A program made the translations under genes and the position numbers. A stretch of DNA of 64,000 bases from an uncultured Bacteroidales bacterium (lineage in GTDB: Bacteria > Bacteroidota > Bacteroidia > Bacteroidales > Paludibacteraceae): NCBI GenBank assembly GCA_900319645.1, contig ONPG01000001.1, forward strand, positions 124,001 through 188,000, given 5' to 3'. The notes beneath the pieces are model-generated. The model was not told where the DNA came from. It was given only the letters and a program-made list of their open reading frames with translations, and searched no databases. This document shows, piece after piece, positions 25,019-39,891 of this stretch. The first letter of the stretch is position 1; each line of letters begins with the position of its first letter.

Positions 25019-26230
25019 ATGGAAGAAAATACGTTTACATCAGGTCCTGTCCGTCCGCTTAATTCGCAAGAATTAGGTGTGGAGCACCTTACGGATTATG
25101 AGTTACTGTCCGACTCCGGGCACAACTTGGTTTACCGTGCGCAGATGGGCGGCAAATGGGTCGTTCTGAAGGCTGCCAAACCCACCGAAGGCGAACAGAC
25201 TCGCAATCAACTCCTGTTGGAGCGTGAGTTCGAAATCATGAACCGCCTGGATTGCATTTATGTGGTTCAGACGATTGCGTTGGTCGATGACCCGCAGCTG
25301 GGGCGTGCTATCCTCATGGAGTATGTGAACGGACGTCCATTGGACAAGTTTCTGGCAGAGAAACCGTCCTTAGCCGAACGTCGGCGCGTAGCGGAAGAAC
25401 TGATGGAGACATTGATTTTCCTGCACGAACGACAGATTGTCCATGGTGACCTCAAGACCAGCAACATCCTCATTTCTGATTCGGGAAACCATGTCCGCCT
25501 CATTGATTTCGGCTTTGCGGATAAAGAAGCGTATATCGCTAAAAACATCGGCACGTCGCCGTCTGTCAAAGTTCCCGAACAACTGCCGGATGATGTCTTG
25601 GCTCCCGAAAGGGACATCTATGCCTTGGGCAAGATGCTGGCTCTCCTCTTCCCGCATTCCGCCAGCCCGGTTATCCGTCGCTGCCTTGCCTTCAATGCAC
25701 GACGATACACCTCTGTCCGTCAAGTCCGCTCGGCTCTGCGCCGTTACTGGAGGATGAAATGGCTCATGCCGCTCATTCTTGTTGTGCTGCTCCTGGCTGC
25801 CGCTGCGGTTCTCTTTTTCCCGAGGCTGGCGGCAACTATGCAACCTGTTGAAACACGGACGGATACGGTGATTGTGATGGTTCCTGCGAAACCCGAAGTC
25901 GATTCGGTTTGGCTGAATCTGAAAAACAATGCCGAAAAGCGTTATGGCGTTTTGTATCGGGCATATGCAGACTCGCTCAAAAACATGCCGAGCAAGAACT
26001 TTGATGATGCAATTAAGATGAAAAACCGCTATGTTGCTAAAATGATTCAGACGAGAGACAAACTGGTTAAATCTTATCCCCAATACGAGGAGCAACTCTT
26101 CAATCAGCATCTGTTTATTTATTATCGTGACTTCAAGCTTTTGAGTGCCATCGCGCAGGATTACCCATATATCTCTGTTACACATAAAGGCGACACAACA
26201 TTCATTCCCCGCAAATCCCTCCAGGAATAA
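25019..26230 (+). CDS. membrane-anchored Ser/Thr protein kinase
   Basis: 403 residues from the ATG at 25019; upstream codons in frame would lie inside the promoter. The kinase domain has the VAIK-type Lys51 (WVVLKAA), catalytic loop HGDLKTSNIL (Asp144, HGD instead of HRD) and DFG (Asp163). The glycine-rich loop is weak (LLSDSGHNLVYRA). A single membrane helix follows (about residues 246-268), then a C-terminal ~135-residue extracytoplasmic helical domain. This is the layout of bacterial receptor-type kinases. The VWA, lipoprotein and type VII-like genes nearby are possible partners, without proof. Confidence 0.9.
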   Translation: MEENTFTSGPVRPLNSQELGVEHLTDYELLSDSGHNLVYRAQMGGKWVVLKAAKPTEGEQTRNQLLLEREFEIMNRLDCIYVVQTIALVDDPQLGRAILMEYVNGRPLDKFLAEKPSLAERRRVAEELMETLIFLHERQIVHGDLKTSNILISDSGNHVRLIDFGFADKEAYIAKNIGTSPSVKVPEQLPDDVLAPERDIYALGKMLALLFPHSASPVIRRCLAFNARRYTSVRQVRSALRRYWRMKWLMPLILVVLLLAAAAVLFFPRLAATMQPVETRTDTVIVMVPAKPEVDSVWLNLKNNAEKRYGVLYRAYADSLKNMPSKNFDDAIKMKNRYVAKMIQTRDKLVKSYPQYEEQLFNQHLFIYYRDFKLLSAIAQDYPYISVTHKGDTTFIPRKSLQE

Positions 26231-26268
26231 CTTTCCTCCTCCTAGTTTTTTCCTTACAACAATTAATT

Positions 26269-26331
26269 TAGGGCTAATTAGGGCGTAAAGAGTCAAACCT
26301 TTGCGCCTTTCGCTTTTTTATTGTAATTTTG
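26269..26331 (+). promoter_or_regulatory. promoter with conserved upstream element, copy 1
   Basis: TTTG (26300-26303), 20 bases, TAATTTTG (26324-26331). Upstream lies AGGGCTAATTAGGGCGTAAA, then G-A-G-T-C-A-A-A-C-C. Nearly the same block occurs before the promoter at 28355-28386. The shared block extends well beyond the -33/-7 boxes and is a candidate operator. Confidence 0.8.
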
Positions 26332-26379
26332 CATCGTTTTTCGCATTGCAGGACTTATAAATTCGATCAGCACGAAATA

Positions 26380-26433
26380 ATGGAGGAAGCCGAAAAGCCA
26401 AAAGTGAGTAAGCAAAATCACCAATCTAATTAA
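26380..26433 (+). CDS. possible 17-codon leader peptide
   Basis: ATG at 26380 opens a 17-codon frame (MEEAEKPKVSKQNHQSN) ending at TAA 26431-26433, 4 bases before the lipoprotein start at 26438. It sits in the leader transcribed from the promoter at 26300. It could couple translation to the downstream gene, but a frame this short may occur by chance. Confidence 0.25.
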   Translation: MEEAEKPKVSKQNHQSN

Positions 26434-26437
26434 TGTA

Positions 26438-27265
26438 ATGAAAAAGTATTTCTTTATTATCATGGGGGCAATTATTCTCGTCGGATGTAAAACTGAGCAA
26501 GAGAAAGCATTAAATGCTGCCATCAAGACCCACCAACTTTCAGCTCTTCGCGAGTTTGAAAAAACGTATCCGGACAGCCTTATGGAAACCAAAGTCAAAA
26601 CTCGTTTCGAAGAAGCTTTGGATTTGTTCATAAAAGATTCAACGTACTACGAAATGGCACACCAAGGCGGTAGTGCTCTCATCAAGAATTATGCGGCAAC
26701 GATGTATATAAACGAATTGCCAAAGGGAACTCATGTCAAAGAAATGCGTTCTATCATTGACGAGACCCAAGAAAACGCCCAGAAGTTAAAAGAAAAGATT
26801 CGTGAATTAGAGGCTGTATTTGAAAAATACTCTTTTGTAGAAAATGATCGTGAGGGAGGAAACTATGTGTATGATTTCCAATCGCCCGATGATTATGGGC
26901 AAGGAGAGGTTCTGATTAAAGCCAGCCCGATTGATATGAAAATATGGTATGATCCGGTAGATGTGTTCTCTAACAGGTACTATAGATTGGGCAGGGTTAC
27001 GCGAAATTGTACCGGAAAGTATTATATCAATGATGATTTAAACGTGGTTCTTGAGGTGGACGAGAAACGAACTTATGGTCGACATCCTTATGCAAATGAC
27101 TACGGACCGGCAAGTACGAAAGTGTTGGTAGCTGATCTCAAGTATCATTACCCGACACCACTGCATCGAAAACAAATCCTAAGCTATTCCGATAATGATT
27201 TCCCGCATTTAACAGGTAAAGATAGCAAAGGTAGAACGATACGCATGAGCGCAAAAGTTAAGTAA
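26438..27265 (+). CDS. lipoprotein of unknown function
   Basis: 275 residues. The signal peptide has a lipobox (IILVGCKTEQ, Cys17). A helical stretch (residues 20-135) is followed by a beta-rich C-terminal half containing W-Y-D-P-V-D-V-F and Y-R-L-G-R-V-T-R. I recognise no named domain. It heads a small operon with three more membrane or secreted proteins, controlled by a promoter nearly identical to the one in front of the type VII-like locus. Confidence 0.8.
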   Translation: MKKYFFIIMGAIILVGCKTEQEKALNAAIKTHQLSALREFEKTYPDSLMETKVKTRFEEALDLFIKDSTYYEMAHQGGSALIKNYAATMYINELPKGTHVKEMRSIIDETQENAQKLKEKIRELEAVFEKYSFVENDREGGNYVYDFQSPDDYGQGEVLIKASPIDMKIWYDPVDVFSNRYYRLGRVTRNCTGKYYINDDLNVVLEVDEKRTYGRHPYANDYGPASTKVLVADLKYHYPTPLHRKQILSYSDNDFPHLTGKDSKGRTIRMSAKVK

Positions 27266-27304
27266 TGCGCCCTTTTAGTATTAACAAATTAAAATCAAAC
27301 AAAC

Positions 27305-27655
27305 ATGAAGAAATTATTCTTTTGGGTCATGGCTGTAATGTTCGGTCTGACCGCCAGCATGAATGCAAATGCTGCAACTACTTCTGCAATGACCACCTCA
27401 TCAGTGGCTGCATCTTCCTCCTCGTCTGATTGGGACAAAGTGCTTGACTCTTACGAGAAGTATGTCAATGAGTACATCGCTGTGTACAAGAAAGTACAGG
27501 CTGGAGACACAAGTGTCTATTCAAAAATGGCTTCTCTTATGGAAAAATACCAGAAGTTGGCAGAGCAATTAGAAAATGCTTCTGATGAATTGACTTCGTC
27601 TCAGTTGGCTCGTCTCCAGAAGATTAACGCCAAACTCGCAAAAGCTATTCAGTAA
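27305..27655 (+). CDS. small secreted helical protein (DUF6591-like)
   Basis: 116 residues: a signal peptide (MKKLFFWVMAVMFGLTASMNANA), a Ser/Thr/Ala-rich linker and a ~75-residue helical domain beginning DWDKVLDSYEKYVNEYIAVY. The domain resembles small periplasmic helical proteins annotated DUF6591 in Bacteroidetes; that name is recalled, not searched. Its function is unknown. It lies 39 bases after the lipoprotein gene and 16 bases before the DUF4190 gene. Confidence 0.8.
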   Translation: MKKLFFWVMAVMFGLTASMNANAATTSAMTTSSVAASSSSSDWDKVLDSYEKYVNEYIAVYKKVQAGDTSVYSKMASLMEKYQKLAEQLENASDELTSSQLARLQKINAKLAKAIQ

Positions 27656-27671
27656 TCTCAAAAACATAATT

Positions 27672-27986
27672 ATGGAAAATCAGCAACAAAATGCACCTTA
27701 TTCCGTTGCGGCATTAGTGCTCGGAATCTGTTCGCTCCTCTTCGGATGCTTCTTCGTGGGACTCGTTTGCGGTATTGTAGGACTGGTCTTGGCTAACAAA
27801 GGATTGGCTGCATACAACGCTAATCCTGCTGCCTATTCCGGTTTCGGTATGCTCAAAGCGGGCAAAGTGACTTCCATCCTTGGAATCATCTTTGGCGCCA
27901 TCTACGTCGTTTATTACATCGTGGCTGTTGCCATTCTCGGCTCTGCAGGATTTGCATGGCTCGAATGGATGAACATGTTCTCCTAA
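27672..27986 (+). CDS. DUF4190-type small membrane protein
   Basis: 104 residues: a short N-terminal NQQQNAPYS tail, then two hydrophobic segments (VAALVLGICSLLFGCFFVGL and a C-terminal one from about residue 70) separated by a polar loop with A-N-K-G. This matches DUF4190, which commonly neighbours DUF2752 in Bacteroidetes. Its stop codon is in the same frame as the next gene's start, 12 bases downstream. Confidence 0.85.
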   Translation: MENQQQNAPYSVAALVLGICSLLFGCFFVGLVCGIVGLVLANKGLAAYNANPAAYSGFGMLKAGKVTSILGIIFGAIYVVYYIVAVAILGSAGFAWLEWMNMFS

Positions 27987-27998
27987 ACGGCCGAAAGA

Positions 27999-28274
27999 GT
28001 GTTCTTGTTACTGCCCTGTGCATATAAGCAACTCTTTGGTATAAGCTGCCCATTGTGCGGCTTCCAGCGGGCTATGTTGCTCTTACTGGACGGCCGCATT
28101 TTGGACAGCTTGTATCGTTTTCCTCCATGGCCGGTGATGGCTATATGGCTGCTGATGGTTATTATCATGAGTGTCCGTGGAAAGACGCGGATATTCTTGT
28201 CTCTTAAATGGCCATGGATAGTTTTGTTGCTTAGCCTTGCTTGTAATACCATTTGGCAGAATATTACTGAGTAA
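27999..28274 (+). CDS. DUF2752 membrane protein
   Basis: 91 residues from a GTG at 27999; no ATG is available upstream because the previous gene's stop lies in the same frame 12 bases before. It has the DUF2752 motif ISCPLCGFQRAML (C-P-x-C-G-x-x-R) and two hydrophobic helices. The role is unknown. Being in frame, readthrough of the TAA at 27984 would fuse DUF4190 and DUF2752 into one protein. Confidence 0.85.
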   Translation: MFLLLPCAYKQLFGISCPLCGFQRAMLLLLDGRILDSLYRFPPWPVMAIWLLMVIIMSVRGKTRIFLSLKWPWIVLLLSLACNTIWQNITE

Positions 28275-28280
28275 CAAATA

Positions 28281-28320
28281 ATTCACTCATTCATTCACTC
28301 GTTAATTCGTTCACTCATTA
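28281..28320. repeat. short TTCACTCATT-type tandem words
   Basis: Imperfect words TTCACTCATTCA, TTCACTCGTTAA and TTCACTCATTAA follow one another between the DUF2752 stop and the next promoter. No function is visible. Confidence 0.6.
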
Positions 28321-28322
28321 AC

Positions 28323-28386
28323 TAAGGGCTAATTAGGGCGTAAAGGGTCAAACCTTTGCGCATTTCATTTTTTTATTGTACCTTTG
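28323..28386 (+). promoter_or_regulatory. promoter P1 of the structured leader, upstream element copy 2
   Basis: TTTG (28355-28358), 20 bases, TACCTTTG (28379-28386), preceded by AGGGCTAATTAGGGCGTAAA as at 26269. Predicted start near 28393. It would transcribe the structured region and, if transcription continues, the ATPase operon. Confidence 0.85.
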
Positions 28387-28392
28387 CACACG

Positions 28393-28560
28393 CAAACCAT
28401 ACAAAGTTGTTCTTTGTCATATTGGGGTCCCCGATGGGTGCTAACGCAGTGCACCCAGTGGGGAGAGCGTAGTTCTACGGCGAAAGTTCATATGACCGAT
28501 TTATCGGGAATCGTACTAAGCCGTAGAACAAGCGAGCGGTGGTACACCAAACGTGCGATA
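28393..28560 (+). ncRNA. structured leader segment or small RNA downstream of P1
   Basis: Nested stems are present: ACAAAG/CTTTGT (28401-28406/28412-28417), CCCC/GGGG (28429-28432/28460-28463) enclosing GGGTGC/GCACCC (28436-28441/28451-28456), and a 10-bp stem GTTCTACGGC/GCCGTAGAAC (28472-28481/28520-28529) enclosing CCGAT/ATCGG. Its 3' part, GTACACCAAACGTG (28542-28555), is a perfect 14-base complement of 28756-28769 further down. No credible reading frame covers it. It resembles no RNA family I recognise. Confidence 0.6.
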
Positions 28561-28592
28561 TGTTGCAAAAAATACAAAAAAATGCAGAATTA

Positions 28593-28624
28593 TTTGTGTA
28601 ATTCAAACTTTTGTTGTATCTTTG
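28593..28624 (+). promoter_or_regulatory. second promoter P2 within the leader
   Basis: TTTG (28593-28596), 20 bases, TATCTTTG (28617-28624). Predicted start near 28630, at a perfect 8-bp hairpin (GCGTCTTT-ATG-AAAGACGC, 28627-28645). The bases 28608-28620 are also complementary to 28817-28829. Confidence 0.8.
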
Positions 28625-28626
28625 CA

Positions 28627-28842
28627 GCGTCTTTATGAAAGACGCCCCGCGTCAGCGGACACGGATTACATATTTGAAAAATCTAACACACCAATTGGGT
28701 TCACAGAAATCTCGCAAGTTTCACAAGAATCGTATATAATTGGCGGATGTTAGTACACGTTTGGTGTACTACTTTTGCTGTATTTACGATTCGGGCAATG
28801 CGAGAGCCTCTGTGAAGATACAACAGAAGTAGTACTTTTTTT
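28627..28842 (+). promoter_or_regulatory. candidate bistable leader RNA of the ATPase operon
   Basis: Two incompatible sets of stems can be drawn. Set 1: CTAACA/TGTTAG plus CCAATT/AATTGG (28683-28696 with 28738-28753), leaving the terminator hairpin 28766-28835 free to form. Set 2: TTCACAGA/TCTGTGAA plus TCTCGCA/TGCGAGA (28700-28716 with 28799-28816), inside it GAATCGTA/TACGATTC (28727-28734 with 28785-28792), and inside that an 8-bp hairpin 28751-28771. Set 2 uses bases of the terminator's left arm. The ~215-nt transcript from P2 could instead be a free small RNA. Confidence 0.6.
28766..28842 (+). terminator. long terminator-like hairpin before the ATPase gene
   Basis: GTACTACTTTTGCTGTAT (28766-28783) pairs with ATACAACAGAAGTAGTAC (28818-28835) over 17 of 18 positions, including one G-U, and is followed by seven T residues (28836-28842). 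It lies 57 bases upstream of the ATPase start. No TAnnTTTG box follows it, so operon transcription must read through. Confidence 0.7.
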
Positions 28843-28898
28843 GTATGACATTTGGTACATAAATTAGATAAATATAGAACAATAATAATCTATAAAAC

Positions 28899-31800
28899 AT
28901 GAAAACTACAATATCTCAAATAGACTATATCATTGATAGTTTTGAGCGTCGGGTTTCTAATCTTACTGACAAACGCGAATTTGAGTTCGCTAAGAAAGAC
29001 TTGCAGGAGGAGTTGCAGAAATTGCAATTGGAAGATCCTGTATATATTCCTTATTCTGTTGGGAATGATATAAAGGATATCCTGAAAAGTATCAGTACTG
29101 CCGCCGAGGAGCATCAGGATTTGCAGATGATTTATGCCGGAGGCGGCGGATGCAAATTGGTACAAGATGTTTGTATTGATTATCCGATGTTCACGGAGGT
29201 ACATGGTTCTCATGTGTTAATCAAGCTGTTCGATAGCAACAATTTTGTGGAGACAGATGCTGCAGAGCGTACGCTCAATCAGTATCTGCTGTTTGTGCTG
29301 TTATCTTACCCGAGAAGAAGTGTACGTGTCAATTTCATTGATCCGGATTTTATCGGTTTGGGAGATGTATTCATGAAACATCTTGGTAATCAAGAGGATG
29401 CACCGATATGTAGATTGTTACAAGATAGAAATGCAATAGAGCATTTCCTTTCTCAAGAGATGACACGCCGTATGTTCGATATAAATCGTCTGGGTGACCG
29501 ATTCTATGCGGACAATCCGAGATCTGAGTTGATAGTGATGTTTAATAACCCTTCCGGTTACCAACCATATAGCAACGAGCTCAATACTTTGCTCAATCGA
29601 GGTAGTCAGTTTGGACTTCAGTTTGTTGTGTTGAGCGATGTTAATGCACCGATTAATCAGAATGTCTTTGACTTACTTTCGCAACGGTCACTATTTACGG
29701 AACTTGATAATAATCAGGAATTGCCCGACCAACAGCCTTCTGTTCATTATACTATTGACCTCTTTTCACAAGAAGATGTCTTTGAGCAATGTATGCAATA
29801 TTTACTGAATGGGATTAGCGATGGTAATGAAGGTGCCCGGTTTGAGGGCTTTTCTCCTCTTCCGCCAATTGAAGAGAGTACGATTCCTGAGCAATATTTT
29901 GGCGAGTTAGAGAGTATAGTTGGTAAAAATGTAACATTGCCGATTCTTACATATACCACATATGACTCTATAATGCGAGATAAATATAAGATTCGCAACA
30001 ATAGATTATATTGGCATGTTGAGGGAAATAAGAAAAAGAATATCGTCATCAATTATTCCGACCAATCGGAAGACCATGCTATTGATTTGCTCAACCAATT
30101 GGTTATGAATATTCTACTTTCTCTGCCTGTGACGAAGGTGCATTGTAATCTGATTAATTGCAGTAAAGACCCCTGGGCACGGTTCTTAGCAAAAAATATT
30201 GATAGCCGAATTGTTGATGTCATATATGAATCCGGTAGAGTGCCTATGCTCTACTCTAAACTATCCAAGTTAATGGAGGATGACAGCAATAATCTTGGTT
30301 GCAGTTTAGAACGAAAGAATATGGAGGACGGCACTATCTATCGTCCATATGAAATAGTTGTTTTGAATGCTAATGACGCAAATAATAGAGGAGAGTTTAC
30401 AAGTTTGTTCAAAAATGGAGCCAATAGTGGTATCTATTTTATTGTGATGAACAATAAGGACGAGCAACCGCCATACGCACAAAACGATAGTATTTTAAAT
30501 CAAACATCCGTTATACAGACTTTAGACGCTGATGATGATTTCTTCATAGGAATTCCGATGGATATCGTGCAGAAAGCAAATATCTTTACTCGCGATAGAG
30601 AGTGGATGCCTGCTGCTACCAAGTACATCAATGATCGTTCGGTAGTTAAAGTGTTCCATGATTGGGAGGCGATTATCAATGCTCCTTATCCTGAAAATTC
30701 ACCTGAACTATCGGCAATCATTGGATATGAACAAGGCACTGGTGTGCCGGTTAAATACAAGATGGATATCGCGGGTTCGCACTACCATTCCTTCGTTATT
30801 GGAGGAACGGGTTCAGGAAAAACCTCTTTCTTGCATAATATTGTTCTCAGTTTTGCTTTAAAATACAAGCCGGAAGATTTAGAGTTATATTTAATCGACC
30901 TCAAAGGTCCGGAGTTCGGACGATACAAGCAACTGCAACAAGCCGGTGCAGTTTTAGTTGATAAATCAGACGATCTAATTACATATGAAGTTATCGGAAG
31001 TCTGGTTAAAAAAATGCTCACTCGCAAAGAGATGTTTACTGATAGTGGAGGCGATTTGGCAAAGTACAATAAGATACACCCGAACAATCCGTTACCGCAA
31101 ATATTGCTCATTGTTGATGAGTGTCAAAACCTCTTCAAGACCAATTCTGAAAATCCGGAATTAGCTCGTAAGATTGTTGATGCGATTACGATAATTGCTA
31201 CCGAAGGACGTGCCTTTGGTATTCACCTTTTGATGGCAACGCAGTCATTAAACAACTGCCCATTATTGGATCAAGGTGTGCTAAATCAATTCCAAGATTT
31301 TTGGATTTTGCCTTGCGTCGATACGGATGCAAAAATGCTTGTAAAGGCAGAGCACAAAGAGATTGTCGGACAAGAAGCAAACAGGATGGAGCGAGAGAAA
31401 ACGACTAATCGTGGACAATGTTTCTTGCAAGGGACAGATGGTTACCATCGATTCAAATATAATTTTATAAGTGATGATAAAAAGAGCATTGAAGATAAGA
31501 GTGTAGTTGAGCAATTTATAGAACGGAGTATCAATAAAGCTTCCGGACATAACTCCAATGGTCAAGTATTCTTTAGTGGACGTCAGAACTATTCTCTATA
31601 TGCTAATGCAGACCGATTAGTTAGCCAAAACCAACGCTATTTGGTGGCTTCTGCCGGACAAAATATCTCATTTGACCAAGCGCCTAACTTGATTCATCTC
31701 ATTCCGGAACAAGGGCAGAACATCCTTACGATGGGATATAATGACAAGCAATTCGTTACTCGCGCAAGCATAGATCTCTTGTTATCTCTGATCCTATCCA

Positions 31801-32591
31801 GTAGAAAGAATGAGTTAGGTTATCGTTTCTTAGTGATCAATAGTTTAGGGATAGAAGGTGCAGAATATAATAATCTGTTGAAACGCATGGCAGATAATGG
31901 TTATATTGATTTATTAGAGCCTAAGCAAAGCGGTTCTCGGCTCAAGTCATTATGTGCTGAGATTGGAAGTGATAGCGTTACACCTACGATATTAACAATT
32001 TTAGGGCAAGAGAAATTTAACTTGTTGAAGAATAATGCAGATTTACCTTCTGATACAGAGGAGTCATCCACTTCTGAAAACGATATGTTCACTCTTCCAG
32101 ATGAGAATGATATTCAAGGTACACTCGCCATTATGGCTAACTTGAATTTTGGAGTTGCCGCACCTCAAGATGAAGTGCCATCAGATGTCAAAACATACCG
32201 AGACGCACTGAGATATATTTTGCAGAAAGGTCCTGAGCATGGAGTTCATACCATACTGCAAGTTAACAAGGCTTCCGAGATAGCGCTTTCTAATAGTAAT
32301 GGCTATTCTCTGGATAATCTTGAACTATACAAATTATTTGGGCATATCGTCTTCCTGCAAGTAGATAAAGATACGGAATCATTCTTCAGTCTCTACGAAC
32401 TCCAACTACATGAGATACAAGAGGCAGAGAACAGACTTCGCGCTTACTACTATAATCCTAACGGAGGAAGTTCCCAGTTAATCTCACCATATATGCTTCC
32501 GACAAAAAAGATTCAGAAAGGAAATACCAATGAGTATGAATCAGCATTGGACGTAGAAGCAACATTTAACGAATTAGTAAGAAACTATTAA
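28899..32591 (+). CDS. FtsK/SpoIIIE-type ATPase of a type VII-like secretion locus
   Basis: 1230 residues. One module has a complete ATP site: GGTGSGKTSFLHN (Lys641), ILLIVDECQNLF (Asp740, Glu741) and LLMATQSL. Comparable beta-strand patterns without Walker A appear in two earlier modules (FGLQFVVLSDVN, SGIYFIVMNNKD) and one later module (HGVHTILQVNKAS), suggesting four RecA-like units. EssC/EccC ATPases likewise string together modules with partly degenerate sites. No FHA domain or membrane helix is visible, unlike EssC. The next gene, 11 bases downstream, encodes a WXG100-like protein. A DNA translocase role is less likely given that context. Confidence 0.85.
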   Translation: MKTTISQIDYIIDSFERRVSNLTDKREFEFAKKDLQEELQKLQLEDPVYIPYSVGNDIKDILKSISTAAEEHQDLQMIYAGGGGCKLVQDVCIDYPMFTEVHGSHVLIKLFDSNNFVETDAAERTLNQYLLFVLLSYPRRSVRVNFIDPDFIGLGDVFMKHLGNQEDAPICRLLQDRNAIEHFLSQEMTRRMFDINRLGDRFYADNPRSELIVMFNNPSGYQPYSNELNTLLNRGSQFGLQFVVLSDVNAPINQNVFDLLSQRSLFTELDNNQELPDQQPSVHYTIDLFSQEDVFEQCMQYLLNGISDGNEGARFEGFSPLPPIEESTIPEQYFGELESIVGKNVTLPILTYTTYDSIMRDKYKIRNNRLYWHVEGNKKKNIVINYSDQSEDHAIDLLNQLVMNILLSLPVTKVHCNLINCSKDPWARFLAKNIDSRIVDVIYESGRVPMLYSKLSKLMEDDSNNLGCSLERKNMEDGTIYRPYEIVVLNANDANNRGEFTSLFKNGANSGIYFIVMNNKDEQPPYAQNDSILNQTSVIQTLDADDDFFIGIPMDIVQKANIFTRDREWMPAATKYINDRSVVKVFHDWEAIINAPYPENSPELSAIIGYEQGTGVPVKYKMDIAGSHYHSFVIGGTGSGKTSFLHNIVLSFALKYKPEDLELYLIDLKGPEFGRYKQLQQAGAVLVDKSDDLITYEVIGSLVKKMLTRKEMFTDSGGDLAKYNKIHPNNPLPQILLIVDECQNLFKTNSENPELARKIVDAITIIATEGRAFGIHLLMATQSLNNCPLLDQGVLNQFQDFWILPCVDTDAKMLVKAEHKEIVGQEANRMEREKTTNRGQCFLQGTDGYHRFKYNFISDDKKSIEDKSVVEQFIERSINKASGHNSNGQVFFSGRQNYSLYANADRLVSQNQRYLVASAGQNISFDQAPNLIHLIPEQGQNILTMGYNDKQFVTRASIDLLLSLILSSRKNELGYRFLVINSLGIEGAEYNNLLKRMADNGYIDLLEPKQSGSRLKSLCAEIGSDSVTPTILTILGQEKFNLLKNNADLPSDTEESSTSENDMFTLPDENDIQGTLAIMANLNFGVAAPQDEVPSDVKTYRDALRYILQKGPEHGVHTILQVNKASEIALSNSNGYSLDNLELYKLFGHIVFLQVDKDTESFFSLYELQLHEIQEAENRLRAYYYNPNGGSSQLISPYMLPTKKIQKGNTNEYESALDVEATFNELVRNY

Positions 32592-32602
32592 AAATCATAA
32601 TT

Positions 32603-32884
32603 ATGGCACAAGATCTTCATATCGGACAAATTCCCGAATTACGTCAGTTTGGCAAAAATTTAAGTCAGGCAAGTGGTGCATTATCCTCCTTGTTTAACCA
32701 GTTAGGACAACAAATGAATCGTGCTTGCAGCACATGGCAGGATAAGCAAGCGCAAACATTTATGGACCAATTTACGCAAGAGCGCAAAGAAGTGGATAAG
32801 ATGGCGCAAATCATGATGGAGTTTTCGCAGTATATAGAAGGATACTGCAAACGTGCAGACGAACTCCAAAATTACCACATGTAA
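32603..32884 (+). CDS. WXG100-like small protein
   Basis: 93 residues, almost entirely helical, with a central turn at C-S-T-W-Q-D-K-Q-A (Trp about residue 47). This is the size and helix-turn-helix layout of ESX/WXG100 proteins, with W-x-D in place of W-x-G. The C-terminal helix holds E-R-K-E-V-D-K-M and ends near Y-I-E-G-Y-C-K-R-A-D-E-L; a Y-x-x-x-D/E-type signal is suggested by YCKRAD. No signal peptide. It probably dimerises and is a substrate or partner of the ATPase. Family membership is inferred from motif, size and position. Confidence 0.72.
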   Translation: MAQDLHIGQIPELRQFGKNLSQASGALSSLFNQLGQQMNRACSTWQDKQAQTFMDQFTQERKEVDKMAQIMMEFSQYIEGYCKRADELQNYHM

Positions 32885-32887
32885 ACC

Positions 32888-33358
32888 ATGGCAGATGATG
32901 TACATGTAACCCAGTTGGACGTTGTTAAACAATACAATGTCAAACTGAACCATTTCCGTGGGGCAGCGATAGCTTGTGGTGTGCTGATTGATAAGCAAAT
33001 AAGAAAAATCCAATCAGAATTGGAGCACAAGAAATCAGATGCTCAATCGGTTCAACGTCAGGCGGTAGGTAAGCGTGATAGTATCGTTCAACGCTATAAA
33101 CCTATTCGCAACGAATCATTCCCCGGTAGCGAATGTGCCGGGAACACGGATAGCGAAATTCAGAATAAATACCAAGCGTTAGAAGCTGCAGTCAATGATT
33201 ACAACAATTCAGTAGCACAGATTCTGGACAAAATGGCGGAAATAGGTCAATTGACAAAAACATTTTGTACTACTTTGGATTCGGAGGTGATAGGCTGTAA
33301 TCAGAAACTAAAAGGAATGATTGCTATCATGGATAGCATGACTAATATGCACATGTAG
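32888..33358 (+). CDS. helical protein of the type VII-like locus
   Basis: 156 residues, predicted mostly helical with two coiled-coil stretches (about residues 35-70 and 90-130) around a Pro/Gly/Cys-containing loop (RNESFPGSECAGN). No signal peptide or membrane helix. It begins 3 bases after the WXG100-like stop, so expression is coupled. It could be a second helical substrate or an LXG-like partner, but I see no diagnostic motif. Confidence 0.75.
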   Translation: MADDVHVTQLDVVKQYNVKLNHFRGAAIACGVLIDKQIRKIQSELEHKKSDAQSVQRQAVGKRDSIVQRYKPIRNESFPGSECAGNTDSEIQNKYQALEAAVNDYNNSVAQILDKMAEIGQLTKTFCTTLDSEVIGCNQKLKGMIAIMDSMTNMHM

Positions 33359-33362
33359 GAAT

Positions 33363-33833
33363 ATGTTTTTTAGTGGAATACAAGATTTTGAGTCTAACTT
33401 TAAGACGTTTGACCGCTTAAATACACTTGTCTTTAATGTATGGCGAGACAAGAGCGCATGGGCGTATCGTGATGGAGATATTGCACGCATAACAAATGAG
33501 TACCGTCAATATATATCACGTGTGCGCTCATTGGCGCAGGAAGCAGAGCGTCTTAATAAAGAGTTGGACAATAAGATGAGTCAGATTCGGCAACTAAATA
33601 ATGAGATAGCCAACCTTGCCGCAAATCCTGCTATCAATGGTTGTGCTATATGGGAGGCGCAAGGCTATAAAATAGTCCCAGGGCGCGAGGAAGAAGGTAT
33701 ACCTCCGTCAGAGGTTCCATGTGGCTCAACACGCTTTGTGGCAAAAGGTGATTCTGAGTCAAATAAGTCAATGGCCGCACAATACTTAGGCGGGTGTGAT
33801 AAAGTGACTGTCCGTCTGGATAGAAGGTTGTAA
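33363..33833 (+). CDS. helical protein with W-x-D-K-x-A motif
   Basis: 156 residues. The N-terminal half has [16 protein letters not shown], matching the W-x-D-K-x-A of the 93-residue protein upstream, followed by a long coiled coil (about residues 45-85). The last ~60 residues are less helical, with [12 protein letters not shown] and several Cys and Gly. It may combine a WXG-type hairpin with a small C-terminal domain. Starts 4 bases after the preceding gene. Function unknown. Confidence 0.72.
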
Positions 33834-33858
33834 TATTAACATAATTCACAATAATACT

Positions 33859-35301
33859 ATGGCATTTAATTTTAATAAAGTTCAGCCGGTTGAGTCAAAA
33901 CCGGTGGAAAAAAAGTTAGAACCGGTAGATGAACTGAAACAGTTTATCAATACGTTTCTCGATGATGGTAAATACGATGAGGCAGAGGCGGAACAGATTC
34001 TGCAAAAGGCTGCCGAACTGAATATTAGTGAGGATGAGGCAATCGACATGATGGAAACAGCTCTTAATCAACTCAAGAGCCAACCTGTTTCTGCGAGTGC
34101 ATCATCTACGGCGTCTATATATCCTGATGATTTGCTTGATGTCATCAAAGAAGGAGAAATAAGAAATATCAAATCTGTCTTCCGCACATGGCAGAACGCT
34201 ATTTCTTCTATAAAAACGGATAACGACCAATATGATCTTATCCAATGCCTTTATTACATGACGTTTGCTGCACTCAATCAGGATGGTATCATTGCAGAAC
34301 AAGAAAGCCGTAAAGCAAAATTGGTTAGTAACTATTGGCGTATATATTGGACATATATAGCTTACATGAAAAATGGAAGGGACGCATTCGCCGAAGACTT
34401 GCTTGCTAAACTGCAAACATTCTCTGATTATGACGAAGATAACATATCTATACTTGAGACGATAGCAGAATTAAATCAATCCGGTGCGCAAGCAGCCCTA
34501 AAATTCTACAATAGCAGAAAAGCCGATGATAGATACAGTAACGAACTACAGGTTCTGGCTAAGGCCCTAAAGGTTGAATTGGGCCTGATTAAGCCGACTG
34601 CTTCCAACTTACAAGAATGCGCCTTTATTACAGACAATCTGATTTGGTGGGAAGATGAAGAAGCGCGCACAGAGCGTAAAGCCCGACAAGAATTAGAACG
34701 TCAGCGTATGGAGCGTGAAATAAAAGAACGTATCCGGCAAGAACAAGAAGCAGAGAAAAGGCGTATTGAAGAGGAACAAGAGAGACTACGAAAGCCGGTT
34801 AAATTTACTATCCAGATTACAGCGGTAACAAATCAGTTAAGCGCTATGTTTGCTTTGCGTAAAGCAATGGATTGGGATGCTGCTGATACGCGCGACAAAC
34901 TAGCAAACTTGCCCTATACGGTTTTGGAGACCAGCTCTACCAAAGAAGCAAAAACCCTGTATGAACAATTAGCCGATGCCGGCTTGACGCTGAAAGTTAC
35001 GGCTATCAACGGCCTTGGAGAAAAAGTGAAAGCAGACTTTACAGCAACTGTTGAGGCACCAGCAACAGCAAAGTCAACGGCAACGGCTGAGGCTACTTTC
35101 GACGTAGTATTGAGGAGTGCCGGTAATAATAAGCTCCAAGTTGTTAAGGCCATTAAAAATTTATTAAGTCTCGGTTTTAAAGAGGCTAAGGACATCGTTG
35201 ATTCTGCTCCTTCACAAGTTAAAAAGGGTGTCGACAAAGCTACAGCAGTGAGAATGAAAAAAGCTCTTGAAGAAGTCGGTGCTAAAGTAGAGATTGTATA
35301 A
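33859..35301 (+). CDS. multidomain protein with C-terminal L7/L12-like domain
   Basis: 480 residues. An N-terminal ~50-residue helical domain ([20 protein letters not shown]) is shared with the next gene. A helical region with TerB-like flavour follows (about residues 90-240), then a charged coiled coil (265-310), a degenerate alpha/beta domain (313-400) and a C-terminal domain (about 410-480) very like the ribosomal L7/L12 C-terminal domain ([48 protein letters not shown]). In ribosomes this domain recruits translational GTPases. In this locus it may be a docking module. No signal or membrane helix. Confidence 0.8.
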
Positions 35302-35328
35302 GTATAACTCATTAAAACATTAAATATT

Positions 35329-36249
35329 ATGATACCTAAAGAATTAAAAGCCCTGATTGATGAACACTGCATGGGCATTAAGGATGCCGGAAAAATTTCA
35401 CCGGAAGTAATGGACCTCATTATGAAAAATGCAGAACAGAAGAAAGCAGATTTCGAAGAAGTTCAAAAATACATGGAAGAGGTCATCAGTGGTCCGACAA
35501 AAGCTGAACGCGAAGCGATAGCTAAAGCAGAAGCTGAACGCAAAGCTAAAGCCGAAGCCGAACGCGCCGAGAAAGAGCGCCTTGCTGCTATTGAACGTGC
35601 AAAACGAGAGAAAATAGAAGCTGCAGAACGTGCTGAAAGAGAACGTCTTGCTGCAATTGAGCGTGCAGAGAAAGAGAAAAAAGAAGCAGCAGAGCGAGCA
35701 GAACGCGAAAAGAAAGAAGCAATATTTAAAGAGTTAAAAAAGAAATACCCGACTGCCGATATATCAGGGATTGGTCATATTCAACTTTATCAAAAACCTA
35801 TTGATAAATGGGAAGATGAATTCAAAGCAAGCGCTAAACGACAAACAATTATAAAGATTAAGAACATTGCTTATTGGGTAGTATTTTCCATTCTTTTGAT
35901 TTTCACATCAGTATGGGTTTACCAATTCGCAGAAAGTACATGGGATAAAGTACTTTCCACAATACTTATTCTAATGGGCTTTGGTGTCAATTTGAATTAT
36001 CGTTTAAAAGATAAATATGAAGATGAAGATGTGGATGCCTTAACCACCTGGAGTGCAGGTTTACTATGGCAACATTTCTTCGTTGAAGGATTTTGGATGA
36101 CTCTTTTAAGTGTTGTTGTCATAATCATTTTTTTGGGGTTTTTCATGTTTTCTAAATATATAAACTATAATGTAAAACGCACAATGACATGGATTGTTGT
36201 AGCAGTTCTTTATCTATCACTTCTCGCATATCCTTTTTTAGAATTATAA
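35329..36249 (+). CDS. coiled-coil membrane protein of the type VII-like locus
   Basis: 306 residues. The N-terminal ~50 residues (PKELKALIDEHC, then DLIMKNAEQKKADFEEVQKY) resemble the start of the preceding protein. A charged A-E-R/K-rich coiled coil follows (about 55-135), with three near-copies of E-R-L-A-A-I-E-R-A. The C-terminal half holds four or five membrane helices (from about residue 180). It is the only membrane protein of the locus and is thus the best candidate for a channel or anchor. I recognise no EssA, EssB, EsaA or EccD homology. Confidence 0.8.
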   Translation: MIPKELKALIDEHCMGIKDAGKISPEVMDLIMKNAEQKKADFEEVQKYMEEVISGPTKAEREAIAKAEAERKAKAEAERAEKERLAAIERAKREKIEAAERAERERLAAIERAEKEKKEAAERAEREKKEAIFKELKKKYPTADISGIGHIQLYQKPIDKWEDEFKASAKRQTIIKIKNIAYWVVFSILLIFTSVWVYQFAESTWDKVLSTILILMGFGVNLNYRLKDKYEDEDVDALTTWSAGLLWQHFFVEGFWMTLLSVVVIIIFLGFFMFSKYINYNVKRTMTWIVVAVLYLSLLAYPFLEL

Positions 36250-36270
36250 TATCCCTTAATAATACGCATT

Positions 36271-37227
36271 ATGAAACAACAAAAACTAATCACTCTTGAT
36301 GAGAGAATCAATCAGGACCTTAAGGACTTGTTAACCAATCATCAAATAAATGCTGCTATTGAATTGTCAAATGAGTTATTTGGCGAAAAAGCCTCCAAAG
36401 AGCACGCTATCTCTACAAAAGGTATGCCAGGCTACTATGCTGGTGAACGTAATGCCCAAACTGTTATGGTCATGCTTAATCCGGGAGTCAATGCTGGGAA
36501 AAACGATGGAAAAGACCAATATAACGAAGAAATTGACAAATATGGAATAAATACGAGTTCATTAGAAACATTTATCAGTACATATCACATAAGGAGCAAA
36601 ACCGGAGTGGAACAAGATTTGGATAAAGAGGGAAAAATAAGAATAGATAATTTTGATGTCAAGCAAGCCGCTTTTTTGAAGGATTGGACGGATAGTGGTG
36701 TTACAATTCCTGCTGGTTTTCCCAGCAATGGTAAAGAAGATCGAGATGTTCTTAGAGAAACGCGAGTTAATGTATTAAAGCAAAAGTTACAATTAGAGTT
36801 AGTTCCATATGCTTCACAGAAATTTAGTTCGTTAGGAAGAAAGAAACTTTGCTATTTATTCCCATATTTGGAAACTGTATTAGATGAGATATTCCGTGTA
36901 GATAATCGTAAGTATGTCATTTTTTGTTCTGGATTCTTTGAGAGATTATTTAAAGCATATTCTAATGAGGCTACTAAGAACACTCAAAGTTTCCGATTCA
37001 AGATTGAGTTATTAGAGAAGCAACCTTATCCAAATATCTTAAGTAATGGAAATGTTTATTGCACTCTGGTTAGGATTGCTAAAATAGATAAAGACAAAGA
37101 AATAGTAGCTATCATTGCACATACTTTCCCGAGTTATGCGCTCCCTAATGCTTATGACAAAATGCGTAAATACGGTCTTAAATGCTTCGAATGTTTGAAT
37201 GATTACCAACAAACTCATAAGCCATGA
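36271..37227 (+). CDS. orphan protein, possibly uracil-DNA-glycosylase fold
   Basis: 318 residues, soluble. TVMVMLNPGVNAGKND and, near the end, IAHTFPSYALPNAYDKM are loosely reminiscent of the N-P-G and H-P-S motifs of the uracil-DNA-glycosylase superfamily, with L-E-L-V-P-Y-A-S and Y-V-I-F-C-S-G-F-F between them. The resemblance is weak and recalled from memory. It follows the membrane protein gene by 21 bases and has the same AT-rich composition, so it may be the last gene of the operon and a candidate effector or accessory protein. Confidence 0.6.
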   Translation: MKQQKLITLDERINQDLKDLLTNHQINAAIELSNELFGEKASKEHAISTKGMPGYYAGERNAQTVMVMLNPGVNAGKNDGKDQYNEEIDKYGINTSSLETFISTYHIRSKTGVEQDLDKEGKIRIDNFDVKQAAFLKDWTDSGVTIPAGFPSNGKEDRDVLRETRVNVLKQKLQLELVPYASQKFSSLGRKKLCYLFPYLETVLDEIFRVDNRKYVIFCSGFFERLFKAYSNEATKNTQSFRFKIELLEKQPYPNILSNGNVYCTLVRIAKIDKDKEIVAIIAHTFPSYALPNAYDKMRKYGLKCFECLNDYQQTHKP

Positions 37228-37365
37228 AAAATATCCTTGTATAATAGAATCATGAAACTATTATTAAATCGTTTGCAGTTTATCTGAAAGGCTACGGATA
37301 TAGCCTAAATGCATAAAAAATGTATCTTGTTTTGAATTTTGTACATTTTGTGACTATATTAAAAT

Positions 37366-37857
37366 ATGGAAAATACAAAAAAAACGCTTCTTTTCATAGA
37401 CATGGATAATGTGCTGGTGGATTTCAAATCGGGCTTGGCGAAAGTGTCCGAAGAAATCAAACAGCAGTATGAGTGTGACGAAAAAGGAAAACCCCATTAC
37501 GATGACATACCCGGTATCTTTGCCCTAATGGAGCCGATGCCCGGAGCTATTGAGGCTGTACACGCATTGAAAGAGAAATACAACCTATACATCCTCAGTA
37601 CGGCTCCGTGGATGAATCCGTCAGCTTGGTCGGACAAAGTGAAATGGGTGCAACATTATTTTGATTCGGCACGCAAAGAGGGTGTTTTCTATAAGCGCCT
37701 GATCCTTTGCCATCATAAGGATATGCTCATCCGTCCGGGGGCATATTTGATTGATGACCGCCCAAATCACGGGGCAGAGCAGTTCGGAGATCATTGGATC
37801 CAAATGGGTTCCGACCGTTTCCCCGATTGGGAGAGTGTGGTCAAGTATTTGATGTGA
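37366..37857 (+). CDS. HAD-family 5'(3')-deoxyribonucleotidase-like protein
   Basis: 163 residues with the HAD motifs FIDMDNVLVDF (DxD nucleophile), LSTAPWMNPSAW (motif II), a Lys in HHKDMLI and LIDDRPNHG (motif IV). These match the NT5C-type nucleotidases that dephosphorylate deoxynucleotides. It looks monocistronic, 138 bases after the preceding gene, with no clear promoter box. Confidence 0.87.
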   Translation: MENTKKTLLFIDMDNVLVDFKSGLAKVSEEIKQQYECDEKGKPHYDDIPGIFALMEPMPGAIEAVHALKEKYNLYILSTAPWMNPSAWSDKVKWVQHYFDSARKEGVFYKRLILCHHKDMLIRPGAYLIDDRPNHGAEQFGDHWIQMGSDRFPDWESVVKYLM

Positions 37858-37939
37858 TATGAAGCGGAATGATCCTTATAGAGAAAGAAATAATAAGAAA
37901 ATTAAAAACCTCGCGATGTATAGGCAATCGTAAGAAACA

Positions 37940-38713
37940 ATGAAACTGACTTTATTTCCGGAATCAAGCTACCGCTTGTCCTTATTCCCAATTATCGGTG
38001 AAGAATCGAACGCCCTTATTGACGACGAAGGCTTCGATGCAGATGTTTTATCTGAGTTGGAAGAAAAATACACAGAGCAAACGGAAAGACAATACGACAT
38101 CATTTTTGATTTCTATGCTTCCGGTGACGGTATGTATTATTCCATTGATGATGGTGATCAGGACGAATTGGAAGACAATGCCATCATTATTGATCGGAGC
38201 AAATACGATTTAGAAGTAAACGAAGAAGAACCCGGTGAAGATTTCCTGCTTGTTGAGAATATGCAAATGGCGGATAACTGCGACATGAGTGATCCTGTTG
38301 AGATGTACAAGGATATCCAGATACGTCACAACGAGACAACCGATGATCATTTGAATATTGTCGTTGATGCAGTTCGCCGTAGGATGCAGCAGGTGGCGCA
38401 GCAATTAGTGGATGATGGTTTGGCTGAAAACGTGGAATCGGTTCGTTTTGCATTACAATATGGTCTGATTTACGGATGTCAATATTGTTTTGATATCAAC
38501 GCTGATGAATTTGATCCGGAAGCATTGCGCCCGATTGATTGTACGGACTGGAACGATTGTCACGTTTCCGATGTATTACAAGAGCATTGGCCGGATAGAC
38601 TCGTTGGCAGTTTAATCTACAATGGTATATTTTATGCCGGCGAGTGTGAAAATATAGACAGCTTTGAATGGAATTGCGATTTAGTAGATAGTGACTTGAA
38701 TAGTTTGCTTTGA
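37940..38713 (+). CDS. acidic hypothetical protein
   Basis: 257 residues, rich in Asp and Glu. The first ~80 residues look like an alpha/beta unit (SYRLSLFPIIGEESNALIDD, then RQYDIIFDFYASGDGMYYSI). A helical stretch follows (about 135-175), then a C-terminal part with Y-G-C-Q-Y-C-F. No signal peptide or known motif. Neighbours are other small hypotheticals. Confidence 0.65.
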   Translation: MKLTLFPESSYRLSLFPIIGEESNALIDDEGFDADVLSELEEKYTEQTERQYDIIFDFYASGDGMYYSIDDGDQDELEDNAIIIDRSKYDLEVNEEEPGEDFLLVENMQMADNCDMSDPVEMYKDIQIRHNETTDDHLNIVVDAVRRRMQQVAQQLVDDGLAENVESVRFALQYGLIYGCQYCFDINADEFDPEALRPIDCTDWNDCHVSDVLQEHWPDRLVGSLIYNGIFYAGECENIDSFEWNCDLVDSDLNSLL

Positions 38714-38754
38714 TGACAGCAATCGTCGCAGGATGCAAAGAGTAGGATAACTAT

Positions 38755-39051
38755 ATGCGTTGGTTAGAGCCATTTGAAAACTTGGAGAATTTTGAGGCGT
38801 ACTTTGGTGACGAACTCAAGGACGCTCCAAAAGGAGAGGTGGTCATCCGTCTTATCGAAGGCGGCAATGAATACATGATAGTCGGCGATACAAAGTGCGG
38901 CTACACGCCGGGCATCAAAGTCGGCTATCATGTATGGATTCAATCTCCGAAAGGCAGCTATATGACCTCCGAAGTCCAAACCATAGACTTCGCCGCAGAA
39001 ACTTTCACTTGCGTGCAGAGCACTTACCATTTCCATTTTGTAAAAAAATAG
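38755..39051 (+). CDS. small hypothetical protein
   Basis: 98 residues, beta-rich (EVVIRLIEGGNEYMIVGDTK, then a Y-H-V-W-I-Q-S-P-K-G segment). No family recognised. It lies 41 bases after the previous gene on the same strand. Confidence 0.55.
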   Translation: MRWLEPFENLENFEAYFGDELKDAPKGEVVIRLIEGGNEYMIVGDTKCGYTPGIKVGYHVWIQSPKGSYMTSEVQTIDFAAETFTCVQSTYHFHFVKK

Positions 39052-39287
39052 GCACTTTATCAAAGATTTAGAATTGTCTTTAATTTTTGACTATTCCTGT
39101 CAAATATTTTTTTGGATCATTTTGGGACATTTTGGACTGATAAAAAATCTGTGTAATTTGTGTAATTTGTGGACATTAAACACCCACGCATGCTTTTGTT
39201 TTTTGTAAAAAAATAAGCTCTTGATTAAATTTTCAGAATTTTTTACTATATTATAGTGTGCCCCGGCGCAGAATAGGATTCTGCTAA
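39052..39287. other. AT-rich gap between small genes
   Basis: It contains words such as GGATCATTTTGGG (near 39113) that recur near 40076 and a doubled TGTGTAATTTG, but no clear promoter, hairpin or gene. Confidence 0.5.
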
Positions 39288-39545
39288 ATGAGTATGAAAC
39301 AGCATTTTACCAAAGCCGAGAAGGAGGCTTTCCGTCATGAACAAGCCCGTATTAAAGCCGCCCGCGAGCGTTTTGACAGCTTCATGACCGAGCATGGATG
39401 GACGAAGTACCATCTCTTCATGCGCGGTTCGAAATGGACGAAAGATGCCGACACTATCATCCATGATAGCAACGGCTGGCACCTGAACGGACAAAACATA
39501 ACCGAGAAAGAATTACACCAACACATCCATTACCCCGAATCATGA
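39288..39545 (+). CDS. small hypothetical protein, first of an overlapping pair
   Basis: 85 residues, charged and helical at the N-terminus (HFTKAEKEAFRHEQARIKAA), then a W-rich segment (EHGWTKYHLF, SKWTKDAD). A second ATG two codons on (39294) is equally plausible as the start. Its stop overlaps the next start codon by 4 bases (ATGA). No family recognised; no toxin or antitoxin motif. Confidence 0.55.
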   Translation: MSMKQHFTKAEKEAFRHEQARIKAARERFDSFMTEHGWTKYHLFMRGSKWTKDADTIIHDSNGWHLNGQNITEKELHQHIHYPES

Positions 39546-39799: not shown

Positions 39800-39891
39800 C
39801 CCCTACTTTTCTCTGTGCATGTCCAAATTTGCCCGCCGTTCATTTTTCATATCACGCTCATAATTGAGCGCGCTGATACTTCCCACGCACT

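What the first reader, a model, noticed from the sequence alone, without database searches (positions are those of the whole stretch)
28899..36249. Type VII (ESX/WXG100)-like secretion locus in a Bacteroidales genome
A large FtsK/SpoIIIE ATPase is followed directly by a 93-residue helical-hairpin protein with a central W-x-D turn, two more small helical proteins, a multidomain cytoplasmic protein and one multi-pass membrane protein. All are on one strand with gaps of 3-27 bases. ATPase plus WXG100-type protein is the minimal signature of type VII secretion, known from Actinobacteria and Firmicutes. None of the known EssA/EssB/EsaA or EccB/D/E parts is recognisable, so the machine would be a new variant.
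Basis: partly seen in the sequence, partly recalled or inferred. Interest (0 to 1): 0.88.

Follow-up and report, generated by a model that had tools for sequence, protein, structure and literature searches.

The report
Mobile type-VII-like ATPase/WXG100 locus
A Bacteroidales-type bacterium carries, on an inserted stretch of DNA, a motor protein and small helper proteins related to the type VII secretion machine of Gram-positive bacteria; such mobile modules have been mentioned in print but what they do in a two-membrane cell is open.

Summary
The 93-residue protein is a genuine WXG100 protein (Pfam PF06013, 35.5 bits, cut-off 27.3). The 1230-residue ATPase is closer to type VII secretion ATPases (EccC/EssC/YukB) than to FtsK by sequence profile and predicted fold, and is additional to the genome's own FtsK. 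Gene 3 is a second WxD hairpin; gene 2 a long coiled hairpin.

"New machine" is too strong. The core (EssC-like ATPase active only in its middle domain, WXG100, second WXG-like hairpin, coiled coil) is a class already noted in print as mobile and T7SS-like (PMC3482391, PMC11090510). This is a new, stand-alone member on a roughly 17.6 kb insertion absent from one congener.

New here: in relatives the coil gene can carry a C-terminal ADP-ribosyltransferase toxin domain (2 of 7 long coil proteins scanned, once in a genome of the window's class).

Against a complete secretion machine: no transmembrane helix in the window ATPase, no conserved membrane partner, EssB and YukD not found. Some relatives sit with antiphage-type genes, so intracellular defence stays a live rival. 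Secretion is not shown.

The parts
24390..42030 (.). inserted island (approximate ends) that holds the locus; in congener G003 the flanking genes are about 220 bp apart
   Evidence: L143: window 24389 and 42031 map to 2269 and 2047; GC 0.37-0.43 over 26-42 kb against about 0.50 at 12-26 and 42-52 kb
28355..28387 (+). Bacteroidales-type promoter match (TTTG - TAnnTTTG)
28593..28625 (+). Bacteroidales-type promoter match nearest the ATPase
28899..32591 (+). EssC/EccC-like FtsK-superfamily ATPase, 1230 aa; one Walker A (residue 635) and one Walker B (736), in the middle domain; no transmembrane helix found
32603..32884 (+). WXG100 protein, 93 aa, W-x-D turn
   Evidence: PF06013 35.5 bits, cut-off 27.3; profile against PDB EsxB 6.6e-13
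32888..33358 (+). coiled-coil protein, 156 aa, predicted as two long helices; occupies the position of the coil (with or without toxin) gene of relatives
   Evidence: AF2 pLDDT 80.9, helices 10-75 and 81-155; profile link to the other coils weak (hhalign probability 28%)
33363..33833 (+). second WxD hairpin protein, 156 aa
   Evidence: hhalign 88.9%, E 2.4e-6 to second hairpins of 11 other loci; no significant Pfam family
33859..35301 (+). 480-aa protein ending in a ribosomal L7/L12 C-terminal domain; accessory, role unknown
   Evidence: PF00542 4.4e-24; an L12-domain protein also lies just upstream of the ATPase in L077
35329..36249 (+). 306-aa membrane protein with charged coiled N-terminus; accessory, no homologue found in the loci compared
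36271..37227 (+). 318-aa protein of unknown family, 21 bases downstream; probable operon member
24980..26230 (+). Ser/Thr kinase with one transmembrane helix, on the same island with its own promoter match; possible regulator
   Evidence: PF00069 6.2e-25; transmembrane 262-280; promoter match 24979-25011

Best explanation
The locus is a stand-alone, horizontally moving module related to type VII secretion. Proposed mechanism: the ATPase forms a ring powered by its middle domain; the WXG100 protein, the second hairpin and the coil protein form an elongated helical complex; the ATPase recognises this complex and moves it (across the inner membrane, or out of an inhibitory complex); in relatives the coil can carry a C-terminal toxin, so the module moves or arms toxins, and in the window it is toxin-free. 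Shown here: homology of ATPase and hairpins to the type VII parts, one active motor site, gene order, co-occurrence across several phyla, toxin fusions in two relatives, insertion into the chromosome. Inferred: ring, complex formation, transport and direction. Membership in the mobile EssC-like/WXG100 class is near certain (about 0.93); export as the activity is about 0.55. The confidence figure is for the whole statement.
For: ATPase: NCBIfam best hits EccCa 2e-25 and EssC 7.2e-22, both far below the curated cut-offs; a profile of 32 homologues finds EccC and YukB chains at 1.1e-57 to 2.2e-48, FtsK at 2.9e-28; the predicted model's top 8 Foldseek hits are all EccC/EssC, though with low TM-scores to the whole model (0.26-0.31). 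32 of 32 aligned ATPases have exactly one Walker A, in the middle domain. WXG100: 9 of 16 first hairpins match PF06013 at E<=0.01 and W is invariant in 16 of 16. Co-occurrence: a home-made WXG profile hits an ORF in 42 of 80 genome-contig loci at E<0.01 and in 40 of 80 at 1e-6 (8 of the loci had given seeds), within 6 kb of the ATPase and, with one exception, on its strand; in 80 viral contigs fetched by the same ATPase profile it hits in 1, the one whose ATPase aligns over more than 300 residues (viral loci have 6 kb flanks, not 10, and about half as many ORFs). Toxin fusions: coil plus ADP-ribosyltransferase in L125 (PF03496, 98.4 bits, cut-off 23.4) and in L051 (44.1 bits), 2 of 7 long coil proteins scanned. 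FHA domain at the ATPase N-terminus in L011 and L078, as for EssC (PMC11217815). Mobility: island and congener without it; relative L009 beside a Mob_Pre relaxase and an integrase.
Against: The window ATPase has no transmembrane helix. No membrane partner is conserved: phmmer with genes 5, 6 and 7 found no homologue among the ORFs of the loci compared, and the window's coil and second hairpin found only the congener L010 and its overlapping copy L004. EssB/YukC and YukD are not found in the own genome. YxxxD/E signal in 0 of 14 hairpins. Pseudomonas L047 has the module beside a CARF-nuclease and a Mokosh-like helicase, which points to antiphage defence; the window ATPase itself matches the PADLOC models SspH and mad8 at 60 bits, presumably through the motor. 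The window coil's profile link to other coils is weak and its Foldseek list has no hit at E<=0.001. Of seven long coil proteins, three have no toxin domain in Pfam and two have hints below cut-off. Most of residues 43-377 of the model has pLDDT below 50.
Confidence: 0.6

Rival explanations
1. Intracellular conflict (antiphage) system: the ATPase ring holds and releases a WXG/coil/toxin complex inside the cell, and nothing is exported.
For: No transmembrane helix in the window ATPase. L047 (Pseudomonas) has in one row a CARF-PD-(D/E)xK nuclease (CARF4, 893 bits) and a MkoA-like helicase (285 bits). PMC11090510 describes the module inside antiphage CoCoNuT operons, though its authors infer secretion. 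Downstream of the module in L125 lie further genes that look defence-like by eye (not scanned). The window ATPase matches PADLOC SspH and mad8 at 60 bits.
Against: WXG100 proteins are known as T7SS substrates, and their coupling to an EccC-type ATPase is the T7SS signature (established knowledge). Many Planctomycetota ATPases of the family have two predicted transmembrane helices before the motor. A small gene overlaps the end of the coil-ADP-ribosyltransferase gene in L125, as an immunity gene would, but it matched no Pfam family and no plasmid. In the window itself only the kinase hints at defence-type signalling.
Confidence: 0.3
2. DNA translocase or conjugation/phage packaging motor with unrelated small helical proteins.
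For: The motor domain also matches FtsK and TcpA structures. Phage and viral motors match the same domain.
Against: EccC/EssC ranks above FtsK. The own genome has a separate FtsK-type gene (G000:C12, 888 aa). In phages 0 of 101 records with a match cover 80% of the query. The WXG100 hit is above the Pfam cut-off.
Confidence: 0.04
3. A decayed or toxin-less remnant: the locus lost its toxin and membrane parts and is no longer a working system.
For: The coil has no C-terminal toxin domain; no conserved membrane partner; rare in the genus (own plus 1 of 24 congeners at 69% identity).
Against: All frames are intact. The congener has the same gene order, with 69% identity for the ATPase and 62-92% for the three small proteins, which suggests selection, although no dN/dS was computed. 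Toxin-free coils also occur in L009, L015 and L073.
Confidence: 0.06

Closest known systems
Mobile WXG100 / YueA(EssC)-like ATPase modules outside Gram-positives (PMC3482391, Table 1 footnote 6; passages seen)
   [quoted passage not shown] here there is a second hairpin and a coil, and a relative in the window's class has a coil-ADP-ribosyltransferase
EssC-like ATPase / two WXG100 / coiled coil-nuclease cassette of Type III-A CoCoNuTs (PMC11090510; passages seen)
   Same: same four core parts, ATPase without transmembrane helices, second WXG100 relative; the paper cites an earlier remark that the operon also occurs stand-alone and mobile
   Different: The window has no vWA, PP2C or McrB/C among the island genes scanned and no nuclease on the coil; it is stand-alone with an L12-domain protein and a membrane protein
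T7SSc-T7SSj of Bacillota and Actinomycetota (PMC11217815; abstract, sections 15 and 16 and passages seen)
   Same: ATPase plus WXG100, kinases and FHA or vWA proteins, extra small WXG proteins beside toxin genes
   Different: Those ATPases are membrane-bound with four NTPase domains and most systems have a ubiquitin-like TsxB; neither feature is seen here
T7SSb LXG toxin with Lap partners (TelA-LXG/LapA3/LapA4, PDB 8gmh)
   Same: long helical targeting domain plus small hairpin partners (recalled); 8gmh ranks third for the gene 2 model
   Different: Foldseek E 0.046, not above the general coiled-coil background; no LXG family hit

Membership tests
Type VII secretion system (T7SSa/b sense) | EccC/EssC-type FtsK-superfamily ATPase | tested here: met
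   NCBIfam scores stay far below the equivalog cut-offs
Type VII secretion system (T7SSa/b sense) | WXG100 protein | tested here: met
   PF06013 35.5 bits, cut-off 27.3; below the cut-off of TIGR03930 (25.5, cut-off 44.85)
Type VII secretion system (T7SSa/b sense) | ATPase anchored by transmembrane helices | tested here: not met
   no segment at or above 1.5 in a 19-residue scan of the window ATPase; many Planctomycetota relatives have two
Type VII secretion system (T7SSa/b sense) | membrane and ubiquitin-like partners (EssB/YukC, YukD) | tested here: not met
   best own-genome scores 11.4 and 13.4 bits, cut-offs 27.4 and 27; genome 84.2% complete
Type VII secretion system (T7SSa/b sense) | EccB/EccD/EccE, EssA, EsaA | not tested
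   no dedicated search was made; none appeared in the Pfam and NCBIfam scans of ten genes of the locus and its surroundings
Type VII secretion system (T7SSa/b sense) | YxxxD/E secretion signal of T7SSa substrates (motif recalled) | tested here: not met
   0 of 14 first hairpins
Type VII secretion system (T7SSa/b sense) | ATPase-dependent export of WXG100 protein | not testable with these tools
   needs experiment
Mobile WXG100/EssC-like ATPase module | three FtsK-like domains, only the middle one active | tested here: met
   single Walker A in 32 of 32; better-modelled regions around 381-600, 604-860 and 915-1197; that all three are FtsK-like rests on Foldseek and the published description
Mobile WXG100/EssC-like ATPase module | adjacent WXG100 protein and a second WXG-like hairpin | tested here: met
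Mobile WXG100/EssC-like ATPase module | coiled-coil protein, in CoCoNuTs fused to a nuclease | tested here: inconclusive
   coil present and predicted as two long helices; no nuclease; profile link weak
Mobile WXG100/EssC-like ATPase module | mobility | tested here: met
   island absent in G003, sporadic in genus, relative L009 beside Mob_Pre and integrase; no integrase was found on the window's own island among the genes scanned
Type III-A CoCoNuT cassette | TerY-like vWA, PP2C and McrB/C homologues in the operon | tested here: not met
   not found among 22 ORFs of the island scanned with Pfam, one of which is the kinase; small ORFs were not all scanned
Chromosomal FtsK/SpoIIIE | is the genome's FtsK | tested here: not met
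   a separate FtsK-type hit lies at G000:C12; profile prefers EccC

The most novel reading that the evidence does not exclude
Bacteroidota carry a mobile protein-export system that works like type VII secretion in a two-membrane cell. An EssC-like ring with one active motor domain exports WXG hairpins together with a coil protein, and the coil is an LXG-like carrier onto which different toxins (ADP-ribosyltransferase, possibly lipase and nuclease) are grafted, sometimes with a small immunity gene beside it. This would extend polymorphic type VII toxins to the Bacteroidota.
Probability: 0.35. Interest if true: 0.78.

Novelty: new member of a known kind. Interest (0 to 1): 0.45.

Why it matters
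Type VII secretion is described from Bacillota and Actinomycetota (PMC11217815, abstract), and no report of export by such a module in Bacteroidota showed in the titles and abstract starts listed (most of the listed papers were not opened, and the library lacks most subscription papers). If these modules export, Bacteroidales have a further toxin-delivery route. If they do not, they show how secretion parts are turned into intracellular defence. The compact toxin-free locus in the window is a convenient test case: four core genes, probably one promoter region.

Tried and rejected
Chance or misannotation of the WXG protein: rejected. Chromosomal FtsK or phage motor: rejected. Plasmid carriage: tblastn of the ATPase finds none of 72,556 plasmid records at 1e-20. 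Orphan WXG copies elsewhere in the genome: one further weak PF06013 hit at E 0.4, no further hit with the family's own profile. An FtsK-like 317-aa protein at G000:C14 (35.5 bits) was looked at and set aside. Phylum-wide search with the L097 ATPase: 0 of 395 at 1e-30, uninformative because no genome known to match was in the sample. Class search with the whole-ATPase profile: 278 of 295, but the matches beyond G000, G282 and G632 that I saw listed cover about the motor only, as housekeeping FtsK would. A profile of the C-terminal domain alone gave 11 of 395 genomes at 1e-5; only 3 were strong (236-281 bits: G000, G282, G632) and the other 8 scored 26-34 bits. Gene 2 fold search: no hit at E<=0.001. 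The 76-aa candidate immunity protein: no Pfam family, no plasmid match at 1e-3. Insertion-site test: of 7 congener stretches, both flanks were seen in 2 (L139, L143); 2 contigs were too short and 3 have other genes beside the right flank. Paper search was useless: 7,489 papers, the 15 listed hold no WXG100. Passages of PMC7159879 and PMC5555719 were seen and gave nothing used here. A first count of WXG neighbours, 24 of 80 loci, was too low because my gene picker dropped overlapping frames; on every ORF of 55 aa or more replaces it.
Full report
What is there. The ATPase has an FtsK_SpoIIIE hit (PF01580, 80.5 bits) at residues 609-784. The 93-aa protein matches PF06013 WXG100 above its cut-off. 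Gene 3 (33363-33833) also has a W-x-D turn. Gene 5 ends in a ribosomal L7/L12 C-terminal domain, gene 6 has three hydrophobic segments. Two matches to the Bacteroidales promoter pattern lie at 28355-28387 and 28593-28625 and the next is at 40550; the window has 12 matches on both strands against 0.49 expected. The pattern itself is recalled, not taken from a call. A terminator-like stem at 28751-28771 lies before the ATPase, at a frequency no higher than chance.

What the ATPase is. NCBIfam ranks EccCa (2e-25) and EssC (7.2e-22) first, below their equivalog cut-offs. phmmer against the PDB ranks an EccC chain first. A profile of 32 homologues finds EccC and YukB at 1.1e-57 to 2.2e-48, before FtsK at 2.9e-28. 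An AlphaFold2 model of residues 1-1198 has mean pLDDT 65, with most of residues 43-377 below 50 and the regions about 381-600, 604-860 and 915-1197 better; its eight best Foldseek hits are EccC/EssC, with TM-scores of 0.26-0.31 by query length. In the 32 ATPases I chose for alignment there is one Walker A motif each, in the middle domain. In the wider list, six of the 80 genome-contig loci (L075, L076, L083, L085, L086, L091, most with actinobacterial titles) have two; these were not in the alignment, and three loci had no ATPase ORF. One active middle domain is the description given in 2012 for a distinct YueA-like ATPase in several other lineages, Bacteroidetes included (PMC3482391, passages seen), and in 2024 for the EssC-like ATPase of Type III-A CoCoNuT operons (PMC11090510, passages seen). 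The own genome has another FtsK-type gene.

The module in other genomes. As contrast, of 80 viral contigs fetched by the same ATPase profile it hits in 1 (L158), which is also the only one whose ATPase aligns over more than 300 residues in one piece. I read the neighbourhoods of 20 loci by eye, picked because they showed small W-containing ORFs or lay in related genomes; the profile finds at least one hairpin in all 20. The recurrent set is ATPase, a WXG100 of 86-98 aa, a coil of 146-276 aa or a longer protein that starts as a coil, and a second WxD hairpin of 68-164 aa, with variation in number and order, in Bacteroidales, Planctomycetota, Chloroflexota, Cyanobacteria, Pseudomonas, a Lachnospiraceae genome and an Acholeplasmataceae MAG (names from record titles, phyla partly recalled). 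First hairpins: W invariant in 16 of 16, PF06013 in 9 of 16 at E<=0.01, PDB profile hits to EsxB at 6.6e-13. Second hairpins: PF06013 in 3 of 14, not the window's; top PDB hits are again ESAT-6-like but weak (0.0035). The window's gene 3 joins them at hhalign probability 88.9%, E 2.4e-6, against 11% for the first hairpins. The window's coil joins the other coils only weakly (28%); it is placed by position and predicted shape.

Toxins. I scanned 7 long coil proteins with Pfam. Two have an ADP-ribosyltransferase domain above cut-off: L125 (G632, same class; 98.4 bits) and L051 (44.1 bits). Two have hints just below cut-off: L090 Lipase_3 (21.1, cut-off 22) and L013 acetyltransferase (20.1, cut-off 20.7). 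Three have no relevant family (L047, L048, L061). The 318-aa coil of L012 was not scanned. In L125 a 76-aa gene overlaps the end of the toxin gene and precedes the second hairpin; it is an immunity candidate only by position. [quoted passage not shown] I did not see it in the listings of searches or in the passages opened; the library lacks most subscription papers.

Mobility. Among 24 congeners one (G010) has a 69%-identical system and one (G023) a distant FHA-bearing version. In G010 the flanking genes differ from those of the window by eye. In congener G003 the two genes that flank the island are about 220 bp apart, against 17.6 kb in the window; in G022 about 12.5 kb of other DNA, mostly of low G+C, lies at the same place; five further congener stretches did not show both flanks. 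The island is 0.37-0.43 G+C against about 0.50 on both sides, though 2-8 kb of the window is also low. L009 lies between a Mob_Pre relaxase and an integrase. No plasmid matched at 1e-20, and no integrase was found on the window's own island among the genes scanned; a YafQ-type toxin gene is there.

How it may work. In established T7SS, EccC/EssC rings recognise WXG100 dimers and drive export. By analogy I propose that the ring here handles a complex of WXG100, second hairpin and coil. For export speak the homology, the toxin fusions and the two predicted transmembrane helices of many Planctomycetota relatives. Against it speak the lack of such helices in the window ATPase, the lack of any conserved membrane partner, no EssB or YukD in the genome, no YxxxD/E signal, and antiphage-type neighbours in Pseudomonas L047. 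The authors of PMC11090510 met the same conflict and leaned to secretion by a different mechanism. I put export at about 0.55 and an intracellular system at about 0.3.

Verdict. The family is known from sequence, and the window adds a compact stand-alone member with unusual accessory genes. The coil-toxin fusions are the part most worth following. The recount strengthens the co-occurrence but leaves the odds where they were, since it says nothing on export.

Noticed in passing
   Followed up: partly
window:33859-35301 and L077:7995-8597: Ribosomal L7/L12 C-terminal domains occur in proteins beside the ATPase in the window and in an Oscillatoriales genome (PF00542); role unknown.
   Followed up: no
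L139:5224-17778: In congener G022 the same chromosomal site holds about 12.5 kb of different, mostly low-GC DNA (sigma-factor-like, caspase-like, Sel1-type genes by eye), so the site may be an insertion hotspot.
   Followed up: partly
L158: A contig filed as viral carries the module (ATPase, several WXG hairpins, coil) upstream of a ClpP-like phage-type gene (by eye).
   Followed up: partly
L047:5925-21054: Pseudomonas taeanensis: vWA, WXG100, coil, ATPase, CARF-PD-(D/E)xK nuclease, kinase-like gene (by eye) and MkoA-like helicase in one row, resembling the published CoCoNuT-associated cassette.
   Followed up: partly
window:40804-41082: YafQ-family toxin gene (PF15738, 106.9 bits) near the right end of the island; its antitoxin was not looked for.
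   Followed up: no
window:41168-41266: A short tandem array with an 11-base unit near the right end of the island.
   Followed up: no
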